Shown here in pieces: positions 40,191-47,262 of a DNA stretch of 64,000 bases. The notes beneath the pieces are model-generated. The model saw only the letters and a program-made list of their open reading frames with translations, was not told the DNA's origin and did not search any database. Within the stretch, counting starts at the first letter, position 1. Each line of letters starts with the position of its first letter. This DNA is from Beijerinckiaceae bacterium (GTDB lineage: Bacteria; Pseudomonadota; Alphaproteobacteria; Rhizobiales; Beijerinckiaceae). Where the stretch lies: positions 1 through 64,000 of the forward strand of contig JAJPIC010000012.1 in NCBI GenBank assembly GCA_021324915.1, written 5' to 3'. The position numbers were made by a program, and so were the translations under genes.

Positions 40191-41780
40191 ATGGCGCATT
40201 CGGTGCATGATTGTGTACGTCGCATCCTTTGCGTTTTCCCGCGCTATACGCCTTCGTTCGGAACTTTCGAATATTCCTATCGACTGACGATGGGCACGCG
40301 CGCCTTCATGCCGCCGCAGGGCCTTTTGCTGATTGCAGCGAGCCTGCCGCCGCATTGGCAAGTCCGCTTCATCGACGAAAACATGGAGCTTGCGGGCGAC
40401 AAGGACTTTGCCTGGGCCGATGCGGTTTTCGTGAGCGGCATGCATGTCCAGCGTCGGCAGATCGAAGAGATCTGCCGCAGAGCGCATCGCCACGACAAGA
40501 TCGTCGCGCTCGGCGGTCCTTCGGTCTCGGCCTGCCCGGAATATTATCCGAGCTTCGACTATCTGCATGTCGGAGAGCTTGGCGATGCCACGGAAGAGCT
40601 TTTTGCCCGCCTCGCCGAGGACACGCGCCGGCCGGAGCGGCAGATTGTTCTGACGACGAAGGTGCGCCGCGAGCTCGCGGATTTCCCTGTCCCGGCTTAC
40701 GATCTCGCGCAGATCGACCGCTATCTGCTGGGCTCGATTCAATATTCCAGCGGCTGCCCCTATCGCTGCGAATTCTGCGACATTCCGGGTCTCTACGGAC
40801 GCGTGCCGCGCATCAAGACGCCGCAACAGATCATTGCCGAGCTCGACAAGCTGCTCGAACGCCGGATCGCAGGGGCCATCTATTTCGTCGATGACAATTT
40901 CATCGCCAACCGGCGCGCCGTCACCGAGCTTCTGCCGCACGTGATCGAATGGCAGAAGCGCAATTCCTATCCAATCAATTTCTCCTGCGAGGCCACACTC
41001 AACATCGCTCGCACGCCGGAAGTTCTCGCGCTCATGCGCGAAGCGGGATTCGATACGGTCTTCTGCGGAATAGAAACGCCGGAGCCCGAAGCACTGCGCG
41101 GCATGGAGAAGAAGCAAAATCTCGTCATGCCCATCCTCGATTCGATCCGCCAGATCAACAAGCACGGCATGCAAGTGGTCTCCGGCATCATTCTCGGGCT
41201 CGATACCGATACGCCGGAATCGGGACAGCGCCTCCTCGATTTCATCGAGGAATCCAAAATCCCGATGCTGACCATCAATCTCCTGCAGGCTTTGCCGCGT
41301 ACGCCGCTCTGGGACAGGCTCGCGCGCGACGGCAGGATCGACGAAGACGAAAGCCGCGAATCGAACGTCCGCTTTCTCATGCCTTACGACGAAGTCGTCG
41401 CCATGTGGCAACGCTGCATGAAGGAGGCCTATGAACCGGAGCGCTTGTTCGAGCGGTTCGCCTATCAGATGCAGGAGACCTGGCCCAACCGCCTGCCCCG
41501 CCCACTCGGCGGCTATCGCACGTCGCCGCGCAATCTCCTGCGCGGTCTCGTCATGCTCGCGAAAGTGATCTGGCACCTCGGAATTGTCGCTGACTATCGG
41601 GCGATCTTCTGGAGATTCGCCAAGCCGCTGTTCAAGCGCGGCGATATCGAAGCGATCCTCGCCACGGCGATCCAGGCCTATCATTTGATTTTGTTTTCGC
41701 GCGATGCCAGCACCGGGCGCGCCAATGCTTCGAATTACGCGCCGAAACTGCGTGTTCTCGAAGAAGCAGTGCCCCATTGA
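40191..41780 (+). CDS. hpnP: Hopanoid C-2 methylase (B12-binding radical SAM)
   Basis: A 529-residue radical-SAM enzyme with an N-terminal cobalamin-binding region. The beginning matches what I know of HpnP: CVFPRYTPSFGTFEYSYRLT and RAFMPPQGLLLIA. The middle has GGPSVSACPEYYPSFDYLHV. The iron-sulfur cysteines are Cys189, Cys193 and Cys196 (SGCPYRCEFCDIPGLYGR), followed by IYFVDDNFIANRR and FCGIETPEPEAL. HpnP methylates C-2 of hopanoids, making the 2-methylhopanoids read as geological biomarkers. No other hopanoid gene is in the window. A related B12-radical-SAM protein of another role cannot be fully excluded. Confidence 0.8.
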   Translation: MAHSVHDCVRRILCVFPRYTPSFGTFEYSYRLTMGTRAFMPPQGLLLIAASLPPHWQVRFIDENMELAGDKDFAWADAVFVSGMHVQRRQIEEICRRAHRHDKIVALGGPSVSACPEYYPSFDYLHVGELGDATEELFARLAEDTRRPERQIVLTTKVRRELADFPVPAYDLAQIDRYLLGSIQYSSGCPYRCEFCDIPGLYGRVPRIKTPQQIIAELDKLLERRIAGAIYFVDDNFIANRRAVTELLPHVIEWQKRNSYPINFSCEATLNIARTPEVLALMREAGFDTVFCGIETPEPEALRGMEKKQNLVMPILDSIRQINKHGMQVVSGIILGLDTDTPESGQRLLDFIEESKIPMLTINLLQALPRTPLWDRLARDGRIDEDESRESNVRFLMPYDEVVAMWQRCMKEAYEPERLFERFAYQMQETWPNRLPRPLGGYRTSPRNLLRGLVMLAKVIWHLGIVADYRAIFWRFAKPLFKRGDIEAILATAIQAYHLILFSRDASTGRANASNYAPKLRVLEEAVPH

Positions 41781-41786
41781 GCGGGG

Positions 41787-42422
41787 ATGTTCACCGGGAC
41801 CGGAGGATCCGGGAACACCGGTTCCATAAAGACCGTACCACTCGCCCGTTCGAAGCTACCGATCGATACGGCCGCTCTCGCCCGATATCTGATCGGCAAA
41901 ATGTTGGTGAGAGAATTGCCGGAAGGCATGGCTAGCGGCCGCATTGTCGAGACCGAAGCCTATGTGATCGGCGACGCCGCCGGGCACGCCTTCCGCGGCA
42001 TGACCAAGCGCAATCGATCGTTGTTTCTCGAGCGCGGACACGCCTATGTCTACCTCGCCTACGGCAGTTCGTACATGCTCAACGTTTCGAGCGAGAAGCC
42101 CGGGATCGGAGCCGGCGTTCTGATCCGGGCGATCGAGCCGCTTCAGGGCATAGAGATCATGCGCTTAAATCGCGGCATCGAACGCTTGCGCGACTTGGCA
42201 CGAGGACCAGGAAGGCTCGCCGCGGCGCTGCGGATCGATAGCGCGCTCGATGGGGTGGATCTTTGCCGAGAAGGCCCGCTATGGCTTGGACATCGTGAGG
42301 ACGAGCCCGGCGAAATCGGGCAGAGCGTCAGGATAGGCATTTCGCGTGACGCGCACAGGCTCCTGCGATTTTATCTTCGCGGCAGTCCTTTCATCAGCGG
42401 CCGAAGATCGCTCAATGAATAA
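41787..42422 (+). CDS. 3-methyladenine DNA glycosylase (AAG/MPG family)
   Basis: A 211-residue DNA repair enzyme that excises alkylated purines. Hallmarks are ALARYLIGKMLVRELPEG, the catalytic glutamate in GRIVETEAYV, and HAFRGMTKRNRSLF, AYVYLAYGSSYMLNVSSE, GAGVLIRAIEPLQG and ARGPGRLAAAL. It starts six bases after the HpnP stop and is likely co-transcribed with it, an unexpected pairing of lipid modification with DNA repair that may be coincidental. Confidence 0.94.
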   Translation: MFTGTGGSGNTGSIKTVPLARSKLPIDTAALARYLIGKMLVRELPEGMASGRIVETEAYVIGDAAGHAFRGMTKRNRSLFLERGHAYVYLAYGSSYMLNVSSEKPGIGAGVLIRAIEPLQGIEIMRLNRGIERLRDLARGPGRLAAALRIDSALDGVDLCREGPLWLGHREDEPGEIGQSVRIGISRDAHRLLRFYLRGSPFISGRRSLNE

Positions 42423-42458: not shown

Positions 42459-44594
42459 TCACTCCGCCGCATGAACGTTCAAGCTCGTAGCGAGCTGATT
42501 GAGCGTGACGAAAGGAATGACGATATCGGCATGCGCGACGGTCGCTGGACGGTGCGCAGCGATGACGCGCGTCATGCGCAAGTCGCGCAAGGTCGCGGCG
42601 ATACGCGCTTCGGTCGGCTCGTCGAGATGGCTCGTCGCTTCATCGAGAAAGAGAATGCGCGGCTTGAGATAGAGAGCGCGCGCCAGGACGACGCGCTGCA
42701 TCTGGCCGCCCGATAGAGCGCTTCCCATATCTCCGACGAGCGTTTCAAATCCCATCGGCATCCGCCGGATGTCTTCGAGGATCGCCGCCTGCGCGGCGCA
42801 TTCCTCGATCAGCGCCATGTCGGGGTGATCGTCGAAGCCGGAGATATTCTCCGCAATCGTGCCTGCAAATAGACCATCGTTTTGCAATACGCCGCCGATC
42901 AGCCGACGATAATTCACAGGGCTCAGCGTTCTGACGTCGCAGCCGTCGATCGCGATCGAGCCTTCGCTCGGCTGCAAGAGGCCCATCAGAACCTTCAAAA
43001 GCGAAGTCTTGCCGCAACCCGACGGACCAGTGATGGCGCAGCATTGTCCGGCCTCGATCGTCAGGTCGGCATTGCGGAAGATCCAGGGCTCGTTGTCGCC
43101 ATAGCGCAGCGAAATGCCCGAGGCGACGAGCTTCGAGCCTTGCTGGCCGGGCGGCGTAATGAGATTCATACGCCCTTCCCGCCTCGGCTCCGGCTCGGCC
43201 AGCACGATGTCGGACAGCCGCTCGGTCTGCACATTGAGGGTTCGCAATTGCAGCGCCGAGGTGAGCAGATTGCCGATGCGCGTGGTGAACTGGTCCTTGT
43301 AGGCAAGGAAGGCGACGAGCATGCCGAGCGTCATATGGTTCTCGATCACCATTTTCGCGCCCAGAACCAGGAGAATGACGCGGTCCGCGCCGAAGAGAAA
43401 TTCATTGGCGCGGCTGAATAGGAGATCGAGCCGCTGCAAGCGCAGGCGTGCGTTCAGCGCCTCTACGAAATGATTGAGCCAGATGGCCCGGCGCCGCTCG
43501 GCAAGCCCGAGGAGCTTGACGCTCGCGATGCCGCGCATCGTCTCGATGAAATGGGTTTGCTGCTTCGCCTCGTTGACGATCGCCTCTTCCGTTCCCTCCC
43601 TATAAGACCGATAGGCGAAGATGCGCAGGATGACGTTGAGCGTGACCGAACCAATGGCGACAAAGCCGAGCCAACCACCATAAAGAAACAGCATCACCAG
43701 CATGCCGACCGCCATGACGCCGTCGAGGACTGCCTGGACGAGGTCGGTTGTGAGGGATTTTTGGATGGTCGTGAGCGACGTGAAGCGCGAGATGAGATCG
43801 CCGACATGGCGGCTCTCGAAATAATCGAGCGGCAATCTCGTCAGATGATCGAAGAGGCTCGTGCCCCATTGCAGCGCGATCCGCGTCCCGGTCAGCATGA
43901 TCGCCCAACCGCGCGCAACGGCGATGGCGAGCTGCACGAGAAGGAGAAGGCCGAGCCCAATTGCCACGACGAGCAGCAAGTCCTGGTCGGCATTGACGAT
44001 CACTTCGTCGATGATGACTTGCGACGCCATCGGAATAAGAAGTGTCACTGCCTCGATGCCGAGCGAGAGCAGGAGGATTTGCGCGAGCGCCGGAGAAAGG
44101 CCCTTGATGTTGCGGAAGAGATGACGAAGGCGCAGCGCATTGCGCTCGTCCTTCTTCACGAACATGTTCGAGGGATGTACCTCGAGCGCGACACCGGTGA
44201 AGAGCCGCGACACGTCGCGGAAGCTCAGCTTGCGGCGCCCGGACACGGGATCATGGACGGTCACGGTCTTATGACCGACGCGTTCGAGCACCACGAAATG
44301 GTTGAGATCCCAATGCAGAATGCACGGCAGCCGCAGCCGCGAGAGGTCCTCGACCTCGAGCCGCAAGGCCCGCACCGCAAGCCCCATCGAGCCCGCGATG
44401 TCCATGAGATGGCGCAAGGTCGTGCCCTTGATCGACACCGCGTAGCGGCGCCTGAGAGCCGCAAGATCGATCGGATGGCCGTAATAGCCGAGTATCATGG
44501 CAAGACACGCCAAGCCGCATTCGGCCGCCTCGGTCTGCAGAATGATCGGCAGCCGGCGCCCGAACCCGAAGCGCAAAGAGCTCCCTAGATCCAT
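42459..44594 (-). CDS. Bacteriocin-type ABC exporter with C39 peptidase domain
   Basis: A 711-residue fusion in three parts. Residues 1-135 form a C39 cysteine peptidase with oxyanion Gln20, catalytic Cys26 (QTEAAECGLACLAMI), His99 (HWDLNHFVVLE) and Asp115 (VHDPVSG), all intact. About 160-430 is the ABC membrane domain. About 475-711 is the ATPase, with Walker A GPSGCGKTS, signature LSGGQMQRV and Walker B RILFLDEATSHLD. This CvaB/RaxB type removes a double-glycine leader while exporting a peptide. Its start overlaps the adaptor stop (TAATG), so the two are coupled. The likely cargo is the peptide at 46252. Confidence 0.95.
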   Translation of the reverse strand: MDLGSSLRFGFGRRLPIILQTEAAECGLACLAMILGYYGHPIDLAALRRRYAVSIKGTTLRHLMDIAGSMGLAVRALRLEVEDLSRLRLPCILHWDLNHFVVLERVGHKTVTVHDPVSGRRKLSFRDVSRLFTGVALEVHPSNMFVKKDERNALRLRHLFRNIKGLSPALAQILLLSLGIEAVTLLIPMASQVIIDEVIVNADQDLLLVVAIGLGLLLLVQLAIAVARGWAIMLTGTRIALQWGTSLFDHLTRLPLDYFESRHVGDLISRFTSLTTIQKSLTTDLVQAVLDGVMAVGMLVMLFLYGGWLGFVAIGSVTLNVILRIFAYRSYREGTEEAIVNEAKQQTHFIETMRGIASVKLLGLAERRRAIWLNHFVEALNARLRLQRLDLLFSRANEFLFGADRVILLVLGAKMVIENHMTLGMLVAFLAYKDQFTTRIGNLLTSALQLRTLNVQTERLSDIVLAEPEPRREGRMNLITPPGQQGSKLVASGISLRYGDNEPWIFRNADLTIEAGQCCAITGPSGCGKTSLLKVLMGLLQPSEGSIAIDGCDVRTLSPVNYRRLIGGVLQNDGLFAGTIAENISGFDDHPDMALIEECAAQAAILEDIRRMPMGFETLVGDMGSALSGGQMQRVVLARALYLKPRILFLDEATSHLDEPTEARIAATLRDLRMTRVIAAHRPATVAHADIVIPFVTLNQLATSLNVHAAE

Positions 44595-45874
44595 TATGCC
44601 CCGCCGCTCACGAGCCGGACGCTGCGCTGCAGGTGATAGAGCGGATCGAACAGCCAGCGATAGAGCGGGCGCTTTTCGAGCGCGATATCGGCATCGACGC
44701 GCATGCCCGCCTCGAGCGCCTTGCGCCGACCGTCGACCGAGACGTAGTTCGTCTCGGGCGTTACGAGAATTCGGTAGATCATCTCTCCTGATCCGCTCTG
44801 CGGAGCTGCCGGTTGCACAGCTTGTTCGCCGCTCGGCATGTCGACCGGGGCGCGGGTCGCTTCCTTCACCGTGCCGCGATAAAGACCGTAGCGCTGGAAG
44901 GGATAAGCCGCGTAGCGCAGCACGACCGGCGCACCCTTTTCGATGAACCCGATCGCCGCGCTGTTGACGAAAAGATTGACTTCGAGATCGCCGGTACGCG
45001 GGAGAAGCGTGACGAGCGGCGTGCCGGCTGCAACTTGTTGGCCGGCGTGAACGCGAATGGACGTGGCGGTGCCCTCCTCCGGCGCGCGCACCTCGATGCT
45101 GCGTTTGGCCTGGCCCTCGGCAATGAGTTCGTCGACATGCAAGGCGTCGCGGTCGATCGCATTGATGTCTTGAGCGAGCTTATCGTCGAACATCGACAAT
45201 TCATCGTCGATTTCGGCGATACGGCCTTTGACCTGCAAGGCGTTCTGCTGAAATTGCGCGCCCTGCGCAAGCGCCTGGATATAGATGTAATTTTGGCCCT
45301 GATAATCGGGATCGGCGACGAAACCCGCCCTGACCCCGCGCTGCAATTCGTCGGCCTTGGTCTTCATTGCGGTGACGGCCGAATTCTGAATCGCGATTTG
45401 CTGCTCGAGCTGATCATATTGGCTCTGCAGGTTGGCGAGTTGCTCCTTCAGCGCCTTTTTCTGCAGGCCGGCCATCGAGAGCCGGATCTGGCGTTGCTTT
45501 TCAAGATTGGCCTTCTGAGCGGTGAGCTGGGCAATGACTTGCTGCTCGGTCGCGCCATTCGAGGAATGCGTGTCGAGATTGACGATGAACAGCAGCGCGC
45601 CCTTCTCGACCTTTTGGCCTTCCTTCACGGCCGCCGTGGTGACCACGCCGGCGGCGGGGCTAGCGAGCGTGATCAATCCCGTTTTCGGCAAAAGGACGCC
45701 CGTTGCATGAACCCGGCGCGTGTAAGTGCCGAACAGCGCGAACAGGACCGCCGCGCCGAGGAGGGCGACGCTGATCGTCGCAACGAGCTTTACCGAAAGC
45801 GGCTGCACCAGATGGACGGGACCAAGCCACGCGTTTTTTCGCGCCTCGATGACCTCGCTGCGAAAAAGCGCCAT
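44594..45874 (-). CDS. HlyD/CvaA-family periplasmic adaptor
   Basis: A 426-residue membrane-fusion protein. The N-terminus MALFRSEVIEARKNAWLGP is typical of CvaA/RaxA adaptors, then comes one membrane helix (LVATISVALLGAAVLFALFG). The first lipoyl half (LASPAAGVVTTAAVKEGQKV) is followed by a long coiled-coil hairpin (about residues 105-230). The second lipoyl half and beta barrel follow (IEVRAPEEGTATSIRVHAGQ). It bridges the C39-ABC exporter to a TolC-like channel, which is not in the window. The start is the ATG at 45874, because upstream codons to a GTG at 46036 do not match the family. Confidence 0.92.
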   Translation of the reverse strand: MALFRSEVIEARKNAWLGPVHLVQPLSVKLVATISVALLGAAVLFALFGTYTRRVHATGVLLPKTGLITLASPAAGVVTTAAVKEGQKVEKGALLFIVNLDTHSSNGATEQQVIAQLTAQKANLEKQRQIRLSMAGLQKKALKEQLANLQSQYDQLEQQIAIQNSAVTAMKTKADELQRGVRAGFVADPDYQGQNYIYIQALAQGAQFQQNALQVKGRIAEIDDELSMFDDKLAQDINAIDRDALHVDELIAEGQAKRSIEVRAPEEGTATSIRVHAGQQVAAGTPLVTLLPRTGDLEVNLFVNSAAIGFIEKGAPVVLRYAAYPFQRYGLYRGTVKEATRAPVDMPSGEQAVQPAAPQSGSGEMIYRILVTPETNYVSVDGRRKALEAGMRVDADIALEKRPLYRWLFDPLYHLQRSVRLVSGGA

Positions 45875-46251
45875 GCCGAAACCCTGTCTCTTGGAACCTG
45901 ATGCGCCAGATCGGCGCCGAGCGACTTGCAAACCCCACCTCAAAACTTCCGGTACAGGCAGAATGTTCCGCGTTAAAAGCGCAGGTATAGCCGGATCAAG
46001 CTTGGCAATATGCAAATATGCAACAGATGTTGTCACCGAGTCACAGGCTATTCCTTATGCCACGGCGATTCTGTGCTTAGATATTCAGCAAATCTACTTG
46101 GCTTTACGCCACAGTGCACGGAAAATTACCTCTCTGGTTGAACAAAAGCCTGGGCAACGCGTTAGGGGCTTTGATGTACCAGGTTGCGCTGCATCGCGAG
46201 ATCAGCGCGATCTCTGCATCTGAACCCGCATCATCACAGAAGGATGTGAAA
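45875..46251. other. 377-base divergent intergenic region of the peptide locus
   Basis: It separates the adaptor (minus) from the leader peptide (plus). By eye the right two thirds (about 46000-46250) are distinctly richer in A+T than the flanks and include the tandem motif atatgcaaatatgcaac near 46012. I find no additional double-glycine peptide and no immunity-type membrane ORF here. A promoter for each direction must be present, but none is convincing by inspection. Confidence 0.45.
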
Positions 46252-46458
46252 ATGCCTCAGACCGAAACGATACGTGAATTGACTGCTTCCGAGCTCGACG
46301 AGGTTTCCGGCGGGCTCTCGGTCACTGCGCATGTTGGCGTCAATGCGAGCGACGTCACCGGCGCCGTATCCGGGCTGGTTGGCCAAGTCGGCGGCTTGGT
46401 CAGCGGTCTTCTCGGCACGGTTCTCGGGGCCGTCGGCGGCCTGACGAGCGCCCTTTGA
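46252..46458 (+). CDS. Double-glycine leader peptide (bacteriocin/microcin-like precursor)
   Basis: A 68-residue precursor. The leader, residues 1-21, contains RELTASELDEVSGG, the pattern recognised by C39 peptidases, with cleavage predicted after Gly21. The 47-residue core starts LSVTAHVGVNASDVTG and then becomes a hydrophobic run with many glycines and GxxxG steps (GLVSGLLGTVLGAVGGL), suitable for membrane insertion. It has no cysteine. The ATG at 46252 has GAAGGA seven bases upstream. The frame continues upstream to 46114, but those residues look noncoding. It is divergent from the exporter genes. Activity and any immunity protein are unknown. Confidence 0.85.
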   Translation: MPQTETIRELTASELDEVSGGLSVTAHVGVNASDVTGAVSGLVGQVGGLVSGLLGTVLGAVGGLTSAL

Positions 46459-46515: not shown

Positions 46516-47262
46516 CTACTCGTCTTCAAGACTTTCATCTTCGAGCGCATCCATCTCGTTCGACTCTTCCGGCTCCGGCAGGCTTTCGTCGTCGCGAGCT
46601 TCCGCGCCTTCGTCCAGCGGGTCCTCGTCTTCCATCAATGCCAGATCGTCGCGCGGTTGCGGCACGACGAAATTCTGCGGCAAGGGCCCATCGAAAAGCC
46701 CGGCGCCTTTGAGTTCCTCGAGGCCCGGCAGATCGCCGATCGCCTCCAGACCGAAATGCATCAAAAAAGCTTCGCTCGTGCCATAGGTGAGCGGCCGGCC
46801 CGGCGCGCGCCGCCTGCCGCGCAATCTCACCCAGCCCGTCTCGATCAACACGTCCATCGTGCCCTTCGAGATTGCCACGCCGCGAATATCCTCGATCTCG
46901 GCACGCGTGACCGGTTGGTGATAGGCGATGATGGCCAAGGTCTCGAGCGCCGCGCGCGACAATTTTCGCGGCTCGACAATGTCCTTCGACAAAAGCCAGC
47001 CGAGGTCGGCAGCGGTGCGGAAGAACCATTTCTTGCCGACGCGCATGAGATTGACGCCGCGCGCGGCATAATCCTGCTTGAGGCGCGAAAGGACCGTTGC
47101 GACCTCGAGCCCTTCCGGCATGCGTCGCGCGATTTCCGCTTCCTCGAGCGGTTCAGATGCGGCGAACAACATCGCTTCGGCAATGCGCATGGCCTCGCCG
47201 AGGAGAGCTGCATCCGTCTCCCTCTCCCTGTCGTCGGCAAACAATCTGGCCACCTCTGCCAA
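46516..47262 (-). CDS. scpB: Segregation and condensation protein B
   Basis: A 248-residue kleisin-interacting protein of the SMC-ScpAB condensin. Two winged-helix domains occupy about residues 18-185, with AEAMLFAASEPLEEAEIARR, LETLAIIAYHQPVTRAEIED, IRGVAISKGTMDVLIETGWV and PLTYGTSEAFLMHFG, all conserved. The C-terminal 50 residues are a strongly acidic tail. It starts nine bases after scpA and ends the dgt-argS-SPOR-nagZ-scpA-scpB series. In related genomes tatABC commonly follows, but here the peptide gene does. Confidence 0.95.
   Translation of the reverse strand: MAEVARLFADDRERETDAALLGEAMRIAEAMLFAASEPLEEAEIARRMPEGLEVATVLSRLKQDYAARGVNLMRVGKKWFFRTAADLGWLLSKDIVEPRKLSRAALETLAIIAYHQPVTRAEIEDIRGVAISKGTMDVLIETGWVRLRGRRRAPGRPLTYGTSEAFLMHFGLEAIGDLPGLEELKGAGLFDGPLPQNFVVPQPRDDLALMEDEDPLDEGAEARDDESLPEPEESNEMDALEDESLEDE

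What the first reader, a model, noticed from the sequence alone, without database searches (positions are those of the whole stretch)
42459..46458. Self-contained double-glycine peptide export locus
A 68-residue precursor with a textbook GG leader (ELTASELDEVSGG) and a glycine/GxxxG-rich hydrophobic core lies divergent from a coupled HlyD-type adaptor and a C39-peptidase ABC exporter whose catalytic Cys26, His99 and Asp115 are all intact. The three genes together can process and secrete a membrane-active peptide. No recognised immunity gene or modifying enzyme is present, so either self-protection is unconventional or the peptide is not a killer (for example a signal or envelope factor). The core is unlike any bacteriocin I can name.
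Basis: partly seen in the sequence, partly recalled or inferred. Interest (0 to 1): 0.75.

Follow-up and report, generated by a model that had tools for sequence, protein, structure and literature searches.

The report
Exported glycine-zipper peptide, three-gene module
A relative of methanol-using bacteria carries a compact three-gene unit that should make, trim and export a small glycine-rich peptide; it resembles known surface-bound killer peptides, but no protection gene travels with it and the peptide changes no faster than its exporter, so its job may not be ordinary bacterial warfare.

Summary
In detail: a 68-aa GG precursor (46252-46458 +), HlyD adaptor (44594-45874 -) and C39 ABC exporter (42459-44594 -), catalytic residues intact. 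They form a conserved module: in 35 of 35 loci extracted because they had a hit, such a peptide lies beside HlyD-ABC (27 divergent, 8 co-directional). In 397 family genomes, 29 of the 30 exporters at least 63% identical to the window's accompany a strong peptide match. In the window's genus, five genomes lack the cassette cleanly (scpB-rSAM gap 0-119 nt, against 4.0-4.7 kb in four occupied sites), so no immunity gene is linked there, and the radical-SAM neighbour is not part of it. The core has two GxxxGxxxG motifs, is neutral to acidic, and is under purifying selection (dN/dS 0.02-0.45 in 24 chosen pairs). Closest known: the Cdz system of Caulobacter and class II microcins. It meets most Cdz-like sequence criteria but lacks an immunity gene, and its core does not diversify. 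Best reading: a self-associating surface peptide exported Cdz-fashion, antagonism the likeliest purpose; a non-killing surface factor or signal is not excluded. New variant of a known kind.

The parts
46252..46458 (+). 68-aa precursor: 21-aa double-glycine leader and 47-aa glycine-zipper core (G44-G48-G52 and G55-G59-G63)
   Evidence: 29 of 397 family genomes have a match at E <= 2.4e-20
45875..46251 (.). divergent intergenic region (GC 0.51 against 0.62 for the window) with an AAGGAT ribosome-binding site before the peptide; poorly conserved in five genomes of the genus, no conserved small ORF
   Evidence: one promoter-like match on the - strand against 0.4 expected; no Rfam match
44594..45874 (-). 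HlyD-type periplasmic adaptor, 426 aa from ATG at 45874
42459..44594 (-). C39-peptidase ABC exporter, 711 aa; C26, H99, D115 intact; the only C39 domain found in the genome at E <= 0.001
41787..42422 (+). 3-methyladenine DNA glycosylase, a bystander: no match in the occupied loci L111-L114 of the genus
40191..41780 (+). B12-binding radical-SAM protein (DUF4070), flanking gene, not part of the module
46516..47262 (-). scpB, the other flanking gene of the cassette

Best explanation
A one-cargo type I secretion module. The C39 domain of the ABC exporter removes the 21-aa leader after Gly20-Gly21 (inferred from intact catalytic residues and the conserved leader). The mature 47-residue peptide passes through the HlyD adaptor and one of the genome's TolC-like channels to the outside (inferred; candidates shown). 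There its helix-prone glycine zippers make it self-associate on the producer surface and insert into membranes (inferred from sequence and from the Cdz precedent). The likeliest purpose is antagonism of nearby bacteria without a dedicated linked immunity gene, self-protection coming from lack of a receptor or from export that bypasses the own inner membrane (inferred).
For: Gene content and intact triad. Peptide beside HlyD-ABC in 35 of 35 loci extracted, in two orientations. 29 of 30 exporters >=63% identical co-occur with a strong peptide match among 397 genomes (Fisher P about 1e-41 on 29/1/1/366, not corrected for kinship). Seven TolC-like (OEP) genes, 14 domain matches. Two GxxxGxxxG without proline or charge inside. 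AlphaFold2 gives helix 32-67 at low to moderate confidence (mean pLDDT 64.9; block means 76 and 81 over residues 41-60). Divergent operons, GG-type leader and zippers match Cdz (PMC5380434 sections 5, 12, 13, 18, 32). Patchy presence in the genus; duplicated or second peptides in some relatives.
Against: No immunity gene in the cassette of the genus. The core is under purifying selection much like the exporter, whereas PMC5380434 reports substantial variation between Cdz-like proteins of related strains. Cores are neutral or acidic (net 0 to -4 in 44 peptides, one of them cut by a contig end). G+A+V+I is 55% of the core against 75% quoted for CdzC/D. No killing, export or aggregation has been observed. 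Zipper enrichment is marginal, and the peptide of G475 has lost zipper glycines.
Confidence: 0.48

Rival explanations
1. A conserved, non-killing surface or matrix factor: the zipper peptide assembles on the cell surface (functional-amyloid-like) and aids adhesion or aggregation; no immunity gene is needed.
For: Purifying selection on the core; no conserved linked immunity candidate found; one core family shared by Methylovirgula, Methylobacterium, Methylorubrum and Methylopila. C39 peptidases also process amyloidogenic peptides in Fap-type systems, as mentioned in PMC11798529 (section 5).
Against: Interleaved clean absence of the whole unit among relatives suits a dispensable social trait better than a core envelope component; no Fap-like outer-membrane gene in the cassette.
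Confidence: 0.28
2. A secreted peptide signal: the exporter releases the mature peptide as a cue sensed by the same species, possibly through a linked regulator.
For: Conserved core; an AraC-type regulator gene lies near the peptide in 16 of 35 loci.
Against: No regulator in the window cassette. The other 19 of 35 stretches gave no AraC match (some are cut by contig ends), among them all five of the window's genus; the window genome has only AraC matches limited to the C-terminal part of the query, residue 143 onward. A hydrophobic zipper 47-mer is an unusual pheromone (general knowledge).
Confidence: 0.13
3. A classical class II microcin: a diffusible toxin with an unlinked or unrecognised immunity protein.
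For: Same export scheme apart from immunity (PMC9746304 passages, which also allow that not all microcins may have specific immunity proteins); sub-threshold Bacteriocin_IIc match; related exporters of about 46% identity are common on enterobacterial plasmids.
Against: No candidate within the cassette; conserved rather than diversifying core; no cassette gene matched at the cassette-free sites.
Confidence: 0.11

Closest known systems
Cdz system of Caulobacter crescentus (CdzABCDI) and Cdz-like systems (PMC5380434)
   Same: Type I secretion pair divergently transcribed from small peptides with a G[G/A/S] leader and uninterrupted glycine zippers; single-peptide forms are usual among Cdz-like systems
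   Different: No CdzI or other immunity gene; core conserved rather than variable; lower G/A/V/I content; C-terminus TSAL uncharged; no sequence comparison with CdzC/D could be made here
Class II microcins with CvaA/CvaB/TolC export (microcin V type)
   Same: C39 ABC exporter with the same triad spacing, adaptor, TolC-like channels elsewhere in the genome, GG leader
   Different: No linked immunity gene; neutral or acidic zipper core without cysteine; no match above curated family cut-offs
Pfam PF10439 Bacteriocin_IIc
   Same: Leader and Gly-rich core align over positions 4-58 of 59
   Different: 23.0 bits, below the 27.1 cut-off; 8 of 15 relatives match at E <= 0.01, best 1.8e-5. In one search Caulobacter vibrioides also matched this family only below the cut-off
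Neisseria nap peptides (PMC11798529)
   Same: Small GG-motif bacteriocin-like peptides next to a C39 peptidase, without detected antimicrobial activity
   Different: Cationic peptides in a low-GC island with a LagC-like immunity gene and a FapF homologue; they act in autolysis

Membership tests
Cdz-like systems | peptide 60-151 residues | tested here: met
   68 aa
Cdz-like systems | leader ending in G[G/A/S] | tested here: met
   VSGG at 18-21; G20-G21 invariant in 15 of 15 rows
Cdz-like systems | one or two glycine zippers not interrupted by proline or charge | tested here: met
   G44/48/52 and G55/59/63, last charged residue D34; enrichment over shuffles marginal
[quoted passage not shown]
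   ends TSAL: partly polar, uncharged; many Methylobacterium-type relatives end in K
Cdz-like systems | type I secretion system within 10 kb | tested here: met
   HlyD start 378 bp away
Cdz-like systems | immunity protein of the CdzI kind (the source calls these hard to identify) | tested here: not met
   no further gene in the cassette of the genus, no conserved small ORF
Cdz-like systems | sequence relation to CdzC/CdzD | not tested
   their sequences were not in hand; the source reports no BLAST hits for CdzC/D
Cdz-like systems | surface aggregates and contact-dependent killing | not testable with these tools
   needs experiment
Class II microcin | C39 ABC exporter with catalytic triad | tested here: met
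   C26/H99/D115
Class II microcin | membrane fusion protein | tested here: met
   HlyD domains above cut-off
Class II microcin | TolC | tested here: inconclusive
   7 OEP genes in the genome; which one serves, if any, is unknown
Class II microcin | cognate immunity protein | tested here: not met
   none linked in the genus; an unlinked one cannot be excluded
Class II microcin | antibacterial activity | not testable with these tools
   needs experiment
PF10439 Bacteriocin_IIc | score at or above the gathering cut-off | tested here: not met
   23.0 against 27.1 bits
NHLP/NHLM export systems | TIGR03796 / TIGR03794 equivalog cut-offs | tested here: not met
   478.5 against 853.3 and 72.2 against 156.2 bits

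The most novel reading that the evidence does not exclude
A GG-leader glycine-zipper peptide family whose core is kept by purifying selection and which needs no immunity gene: a conserved secreted surface or matrix building block (or kin cue) of methylotroph-related Hyphomicrobiales that uses microcin-type export machinery for something other than killing.
Probability: 0.38. Interest if true: 0.68.

Novelty: new variant of a known kind. Interest (0 to 1): 0.5.

Why it matters
Microcin-type exporters are usually read as weapons with a linked immunity gene. Here a cargo family has a conserved core, no linked immunity gene in the genus examined closely, and clean presence/absence among relatives with natural empty-site strains. 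That makes it a tidy system for asking whether glycine-zipper GG peptides of Gram-negatives are always weapons. A search of the held papers for methylobacterium + bacteriocin + glycine zipper returned none.

Tried and rejected
Radical-SAM gene 40191-41780 as a peptide-modifying enzyme: rejected, it is present next to scpB at all 5 cassette-free sites looked at (4 in full length, G497 only its end at a contig edge). DNA glycosylase 41787-42422 as part of the unit: rejected, no match in L111-L114. NHLP/RiPP system: equivalog cut-offs not reached. Linked immunity gene: ORF clustering across loci (whose output was cut, so I read only its head and tail) gave as neighbours in three or more lineages only frames overlapping peptide, HlyD or ABC, judged by position, and the AraC gene with its shadows; ORFs under 30 aa were not examined there, and genes private to one lineage outside the window's genus (for example a membrane-protein-like ORF after the peptide in L129) were not excluded as immunity genes. 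Own-genome second hit at C24 (E 0.003, inside a 482-aa frame) was not followed. Two class-level hits (E 8e-4 and 9e-4, inside 478- and 833-aa frames) were taken as chance. Five weak family hits (G570, G589, G694, G732, G771) were left out of the 29; only G589 was looked at. Rfam and promoter scans led nowhere. A PDB search of the peptide gave one hit at E 0.88. Plasmid regions of Gluconobacter, Methylobacterium bullatum and Kozakia with related exporters were opened but not scanned for peptides. HlyD dN/dS of 0.95 for one distant pair (L032/L036) is read as saturation.

Limits: 13 of the 30 lower-identity exporter loci were fetched and scanned. The 35 loci (29 family genomes and 6 further order genomes) were chosen because they had hits, so they measure linkage, not prevalence; in L040 the peptide next to the exporter is the second (beta) type, the alpha copy of that genome being on another contig. 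The pairs were chosen by hand and are not independent; where a locus has two alpha copies the one nearest HlyD was used. Exporter of G621 matched over residues 4-494 only.
Full report
WHAT IS THERE. The window (contig C15 of a 3.07-Mb, 28-contig genome, 98.6% complete) holds a 68-aa ORF at 46252-46458 (+) with leader MPQTETIRELTASELDEVSGG and a 47-aa core; a 426-aa HlyD-type adaptor at 44594-45874 (-); and a 711-aa exporter at 42459-44594 (-) with Peptidase_C39, ABC_membrane and ABC_tran domains. Q20, C26, H99 and D115 are present; the C/H/D spacing equals that of the CvaB triad quoted in PMC9746304 (passages). The best solved relative is an ABC-type bacteriocin transporter with the peptidase domain (4ry2 and others); ComA comes further down the list. 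The genome shows no other C39 domain at E <= 0.001, no other Bacteriocin_IIc match at E <= 0.1 and seven OEP/TolC-like genes. GC of the three genes (0.61-0.65) is close to that of the window (0.62).

ORGANISM. 

CONSERVATION AND LINKAGE. The peptide family was found in 12 of 397 order genomes and in 35 of 397 family genomes at E <= 0.001: 29 strong (E <= 2.4e-20), one beside an assembly gap (G543, 2.1e-9) and five weak. In the class sample 4 of 289 matched, two of them weakly inside long frames. The exporter searched in 397 family genomes gave 60 genomes: 30 with 63% identity or more and 30 with 43-55%. Of the first 30, 29 are the strong-peptide genomes; the thirtieth (G589, fragmented) has two different glycine-rich GG peptides. 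Among 13 of the 30 lower-identity loci scanned, several have other GG-type leader peptides nearby with unrelated cores. In 35 of 35 loci extracted because they had hits, a peptide of this kind lies beside HlyD-ABC, 27 divergent and 8 co-directional; a link kept across a change of orientation argues for a functional unit.

SELECTION. Over 24 hand-chosen pairs core dN/dS is 0.02-0.45; it is lower than that of the exporter in 13 pairs, higher in 10 and equal in one (my count). Window against L113 and L114 of its genus: core 84% and 91% identical (dN/dS 0.10, 0.07), leader 67% and 67%, HlyD 75% and 70%, ABC 83% and 77%. This is not general: against L111 of the same genus the core is 62%, leader 67%, HlyD 62%, ABC 73%, and in several Methylobacterium-type pairs the core is less conserved than the exporter (83% against 93% for L119/L131). 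In the most distant pair with Methylopila-type loci (L032/L036) the core is 65% against 37% for HlyD. Short sequences make single values rough. The overall result is purifying selection, not diversification.

A CLEAN CASSETTE. In the window's genus the unit sits between scpB and the radical-SAM gene. Four occupied sites span 4030, 4384, 4621 and 4735 nt (the last, the window, includes the DNA glycosylase); five genomes without it have gaps of 0, 76, 119, 0 and 91 nt, and neither peptide nor exporter was found elsewhere in those five. G412 is a single-contig genome; the other four are incomplete assemblies, and in G497 only the end of the radical-SAM gene is on the contig. Two further genomes with the peptide (G581, G543) could not be scored for the full site. 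On a ScpB+radical-SAM tree of eight of the eleven genus genomes presence and absence are interleaved, needing at least three changes (my parsimony count), or four if only losses. Exporter and flanking-gene identities run in parallel (83 and 80, 73 and 72, 81 and 81%), which favours vertical descent with loss over repeated insertion. So no immunity gene, modifying enzyme or mobile gene belongs to the unit in this genus. The 377-nt divergent region is poorly conserved among five genus genomes apart from the ribosome-binding site, and holds no conserved small ORF.

VARIATION IN RELATIVES. Four loci carry a second, distinct GG peptide ('beta', alignment A3) and others a tandem copy of the first. 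An AraC-type regulator lies on the peptide side in 16 of 35 loci, in none of the five of the window's genus. All 44 peptides extracted (one cut by a contig end) have neutral to acidic cores (net 0 to -4) without cysteine; eight contain a proline.

HOW IT PROBABLY WORKS. Shown: genes, intact triad, conserved leader, linkage, channel candidates, a helix prediction of low to moderate confidence. Inferred: cleavage after Gly21, export through HlyD and a TolC-like channel, self-association through the zippers, membrane or surface action. The nearest worked-out precedent is Cdz of Caulobacter (PMC5380434: abstract, passages and sections 5, 12, 13, 18, 32 seen), with the same divergent plan and zipper peptides held on the producer surface. 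The module meets the length, leader, zipper and linkage criteria given there; it lacks an immunity gene and the toxin variability noted there. I therefore hold that it works like Cdz up to the surface, with antagonism the likeliest purpose, but do not file it as a proven member. A conserved surface factor is the main rival; the gonococcal nap peptides (PMC11798529: abstract and section 5 seen) show that bacteriocin-like GG peptides need not be antimicrobial.

NOVELTY. Kind known, variant new as far as the held papers show: the listings show no title or abstract describing this family, (methylobacterium, bacteriocin, glycine zipper) returned 0 papers, and passages of PMC13174018 treat gamma-proteobacterial candidates only. 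The library lacks most subscription journals.

Noticed in passing
L125 9821-10036, L031 10499 (-), L033 9379, L040 9623: A second GG peptide type (beta) with a different, well conserved core containing a proline, beside the first in three loci and next to the exporter in a fourth; suggests a two-peptide version.
   Followed up: partly
L009 8536-9480, L035 10704-11597, L034 8503-9489 and others: AraC-family regulator gene near the peptide in 16 of 35 loci, absent from the five loci of the window's genus.
   Followed up: partly
L135 44-301 (-), L136 7065-7289 (-): Two strongly repetitive glycine-zipper GG peptides in a genome (G589) whose exporter is 69% identical to the window's.
   Followed up: no
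L137 7541-7774 (-), L138 13547-13771, L139 6972-7166, L146 7488-7739: More distant exporters (45-55% identical) sit near GG-type leader peptides with unrelated cores, including a Lys/Asp-rich one and a Gly/Ser/Asn-rich one.
   Followed up: no
window 41787-42422: A 3-methyladenine DNA glycosylase gene lies between the radical-SAM gene and the exporter in the window genome, with no match in the occupied loci L111-L114 of its genus.
   Followed up: partly
L035, about 2224-2650 bp from the HlyD start on the peptide side: A short frame resembling the end of an ABC ATPase next to the AraC gene, perhaps a relic of a second exporter (by eye).
   Followed up: no
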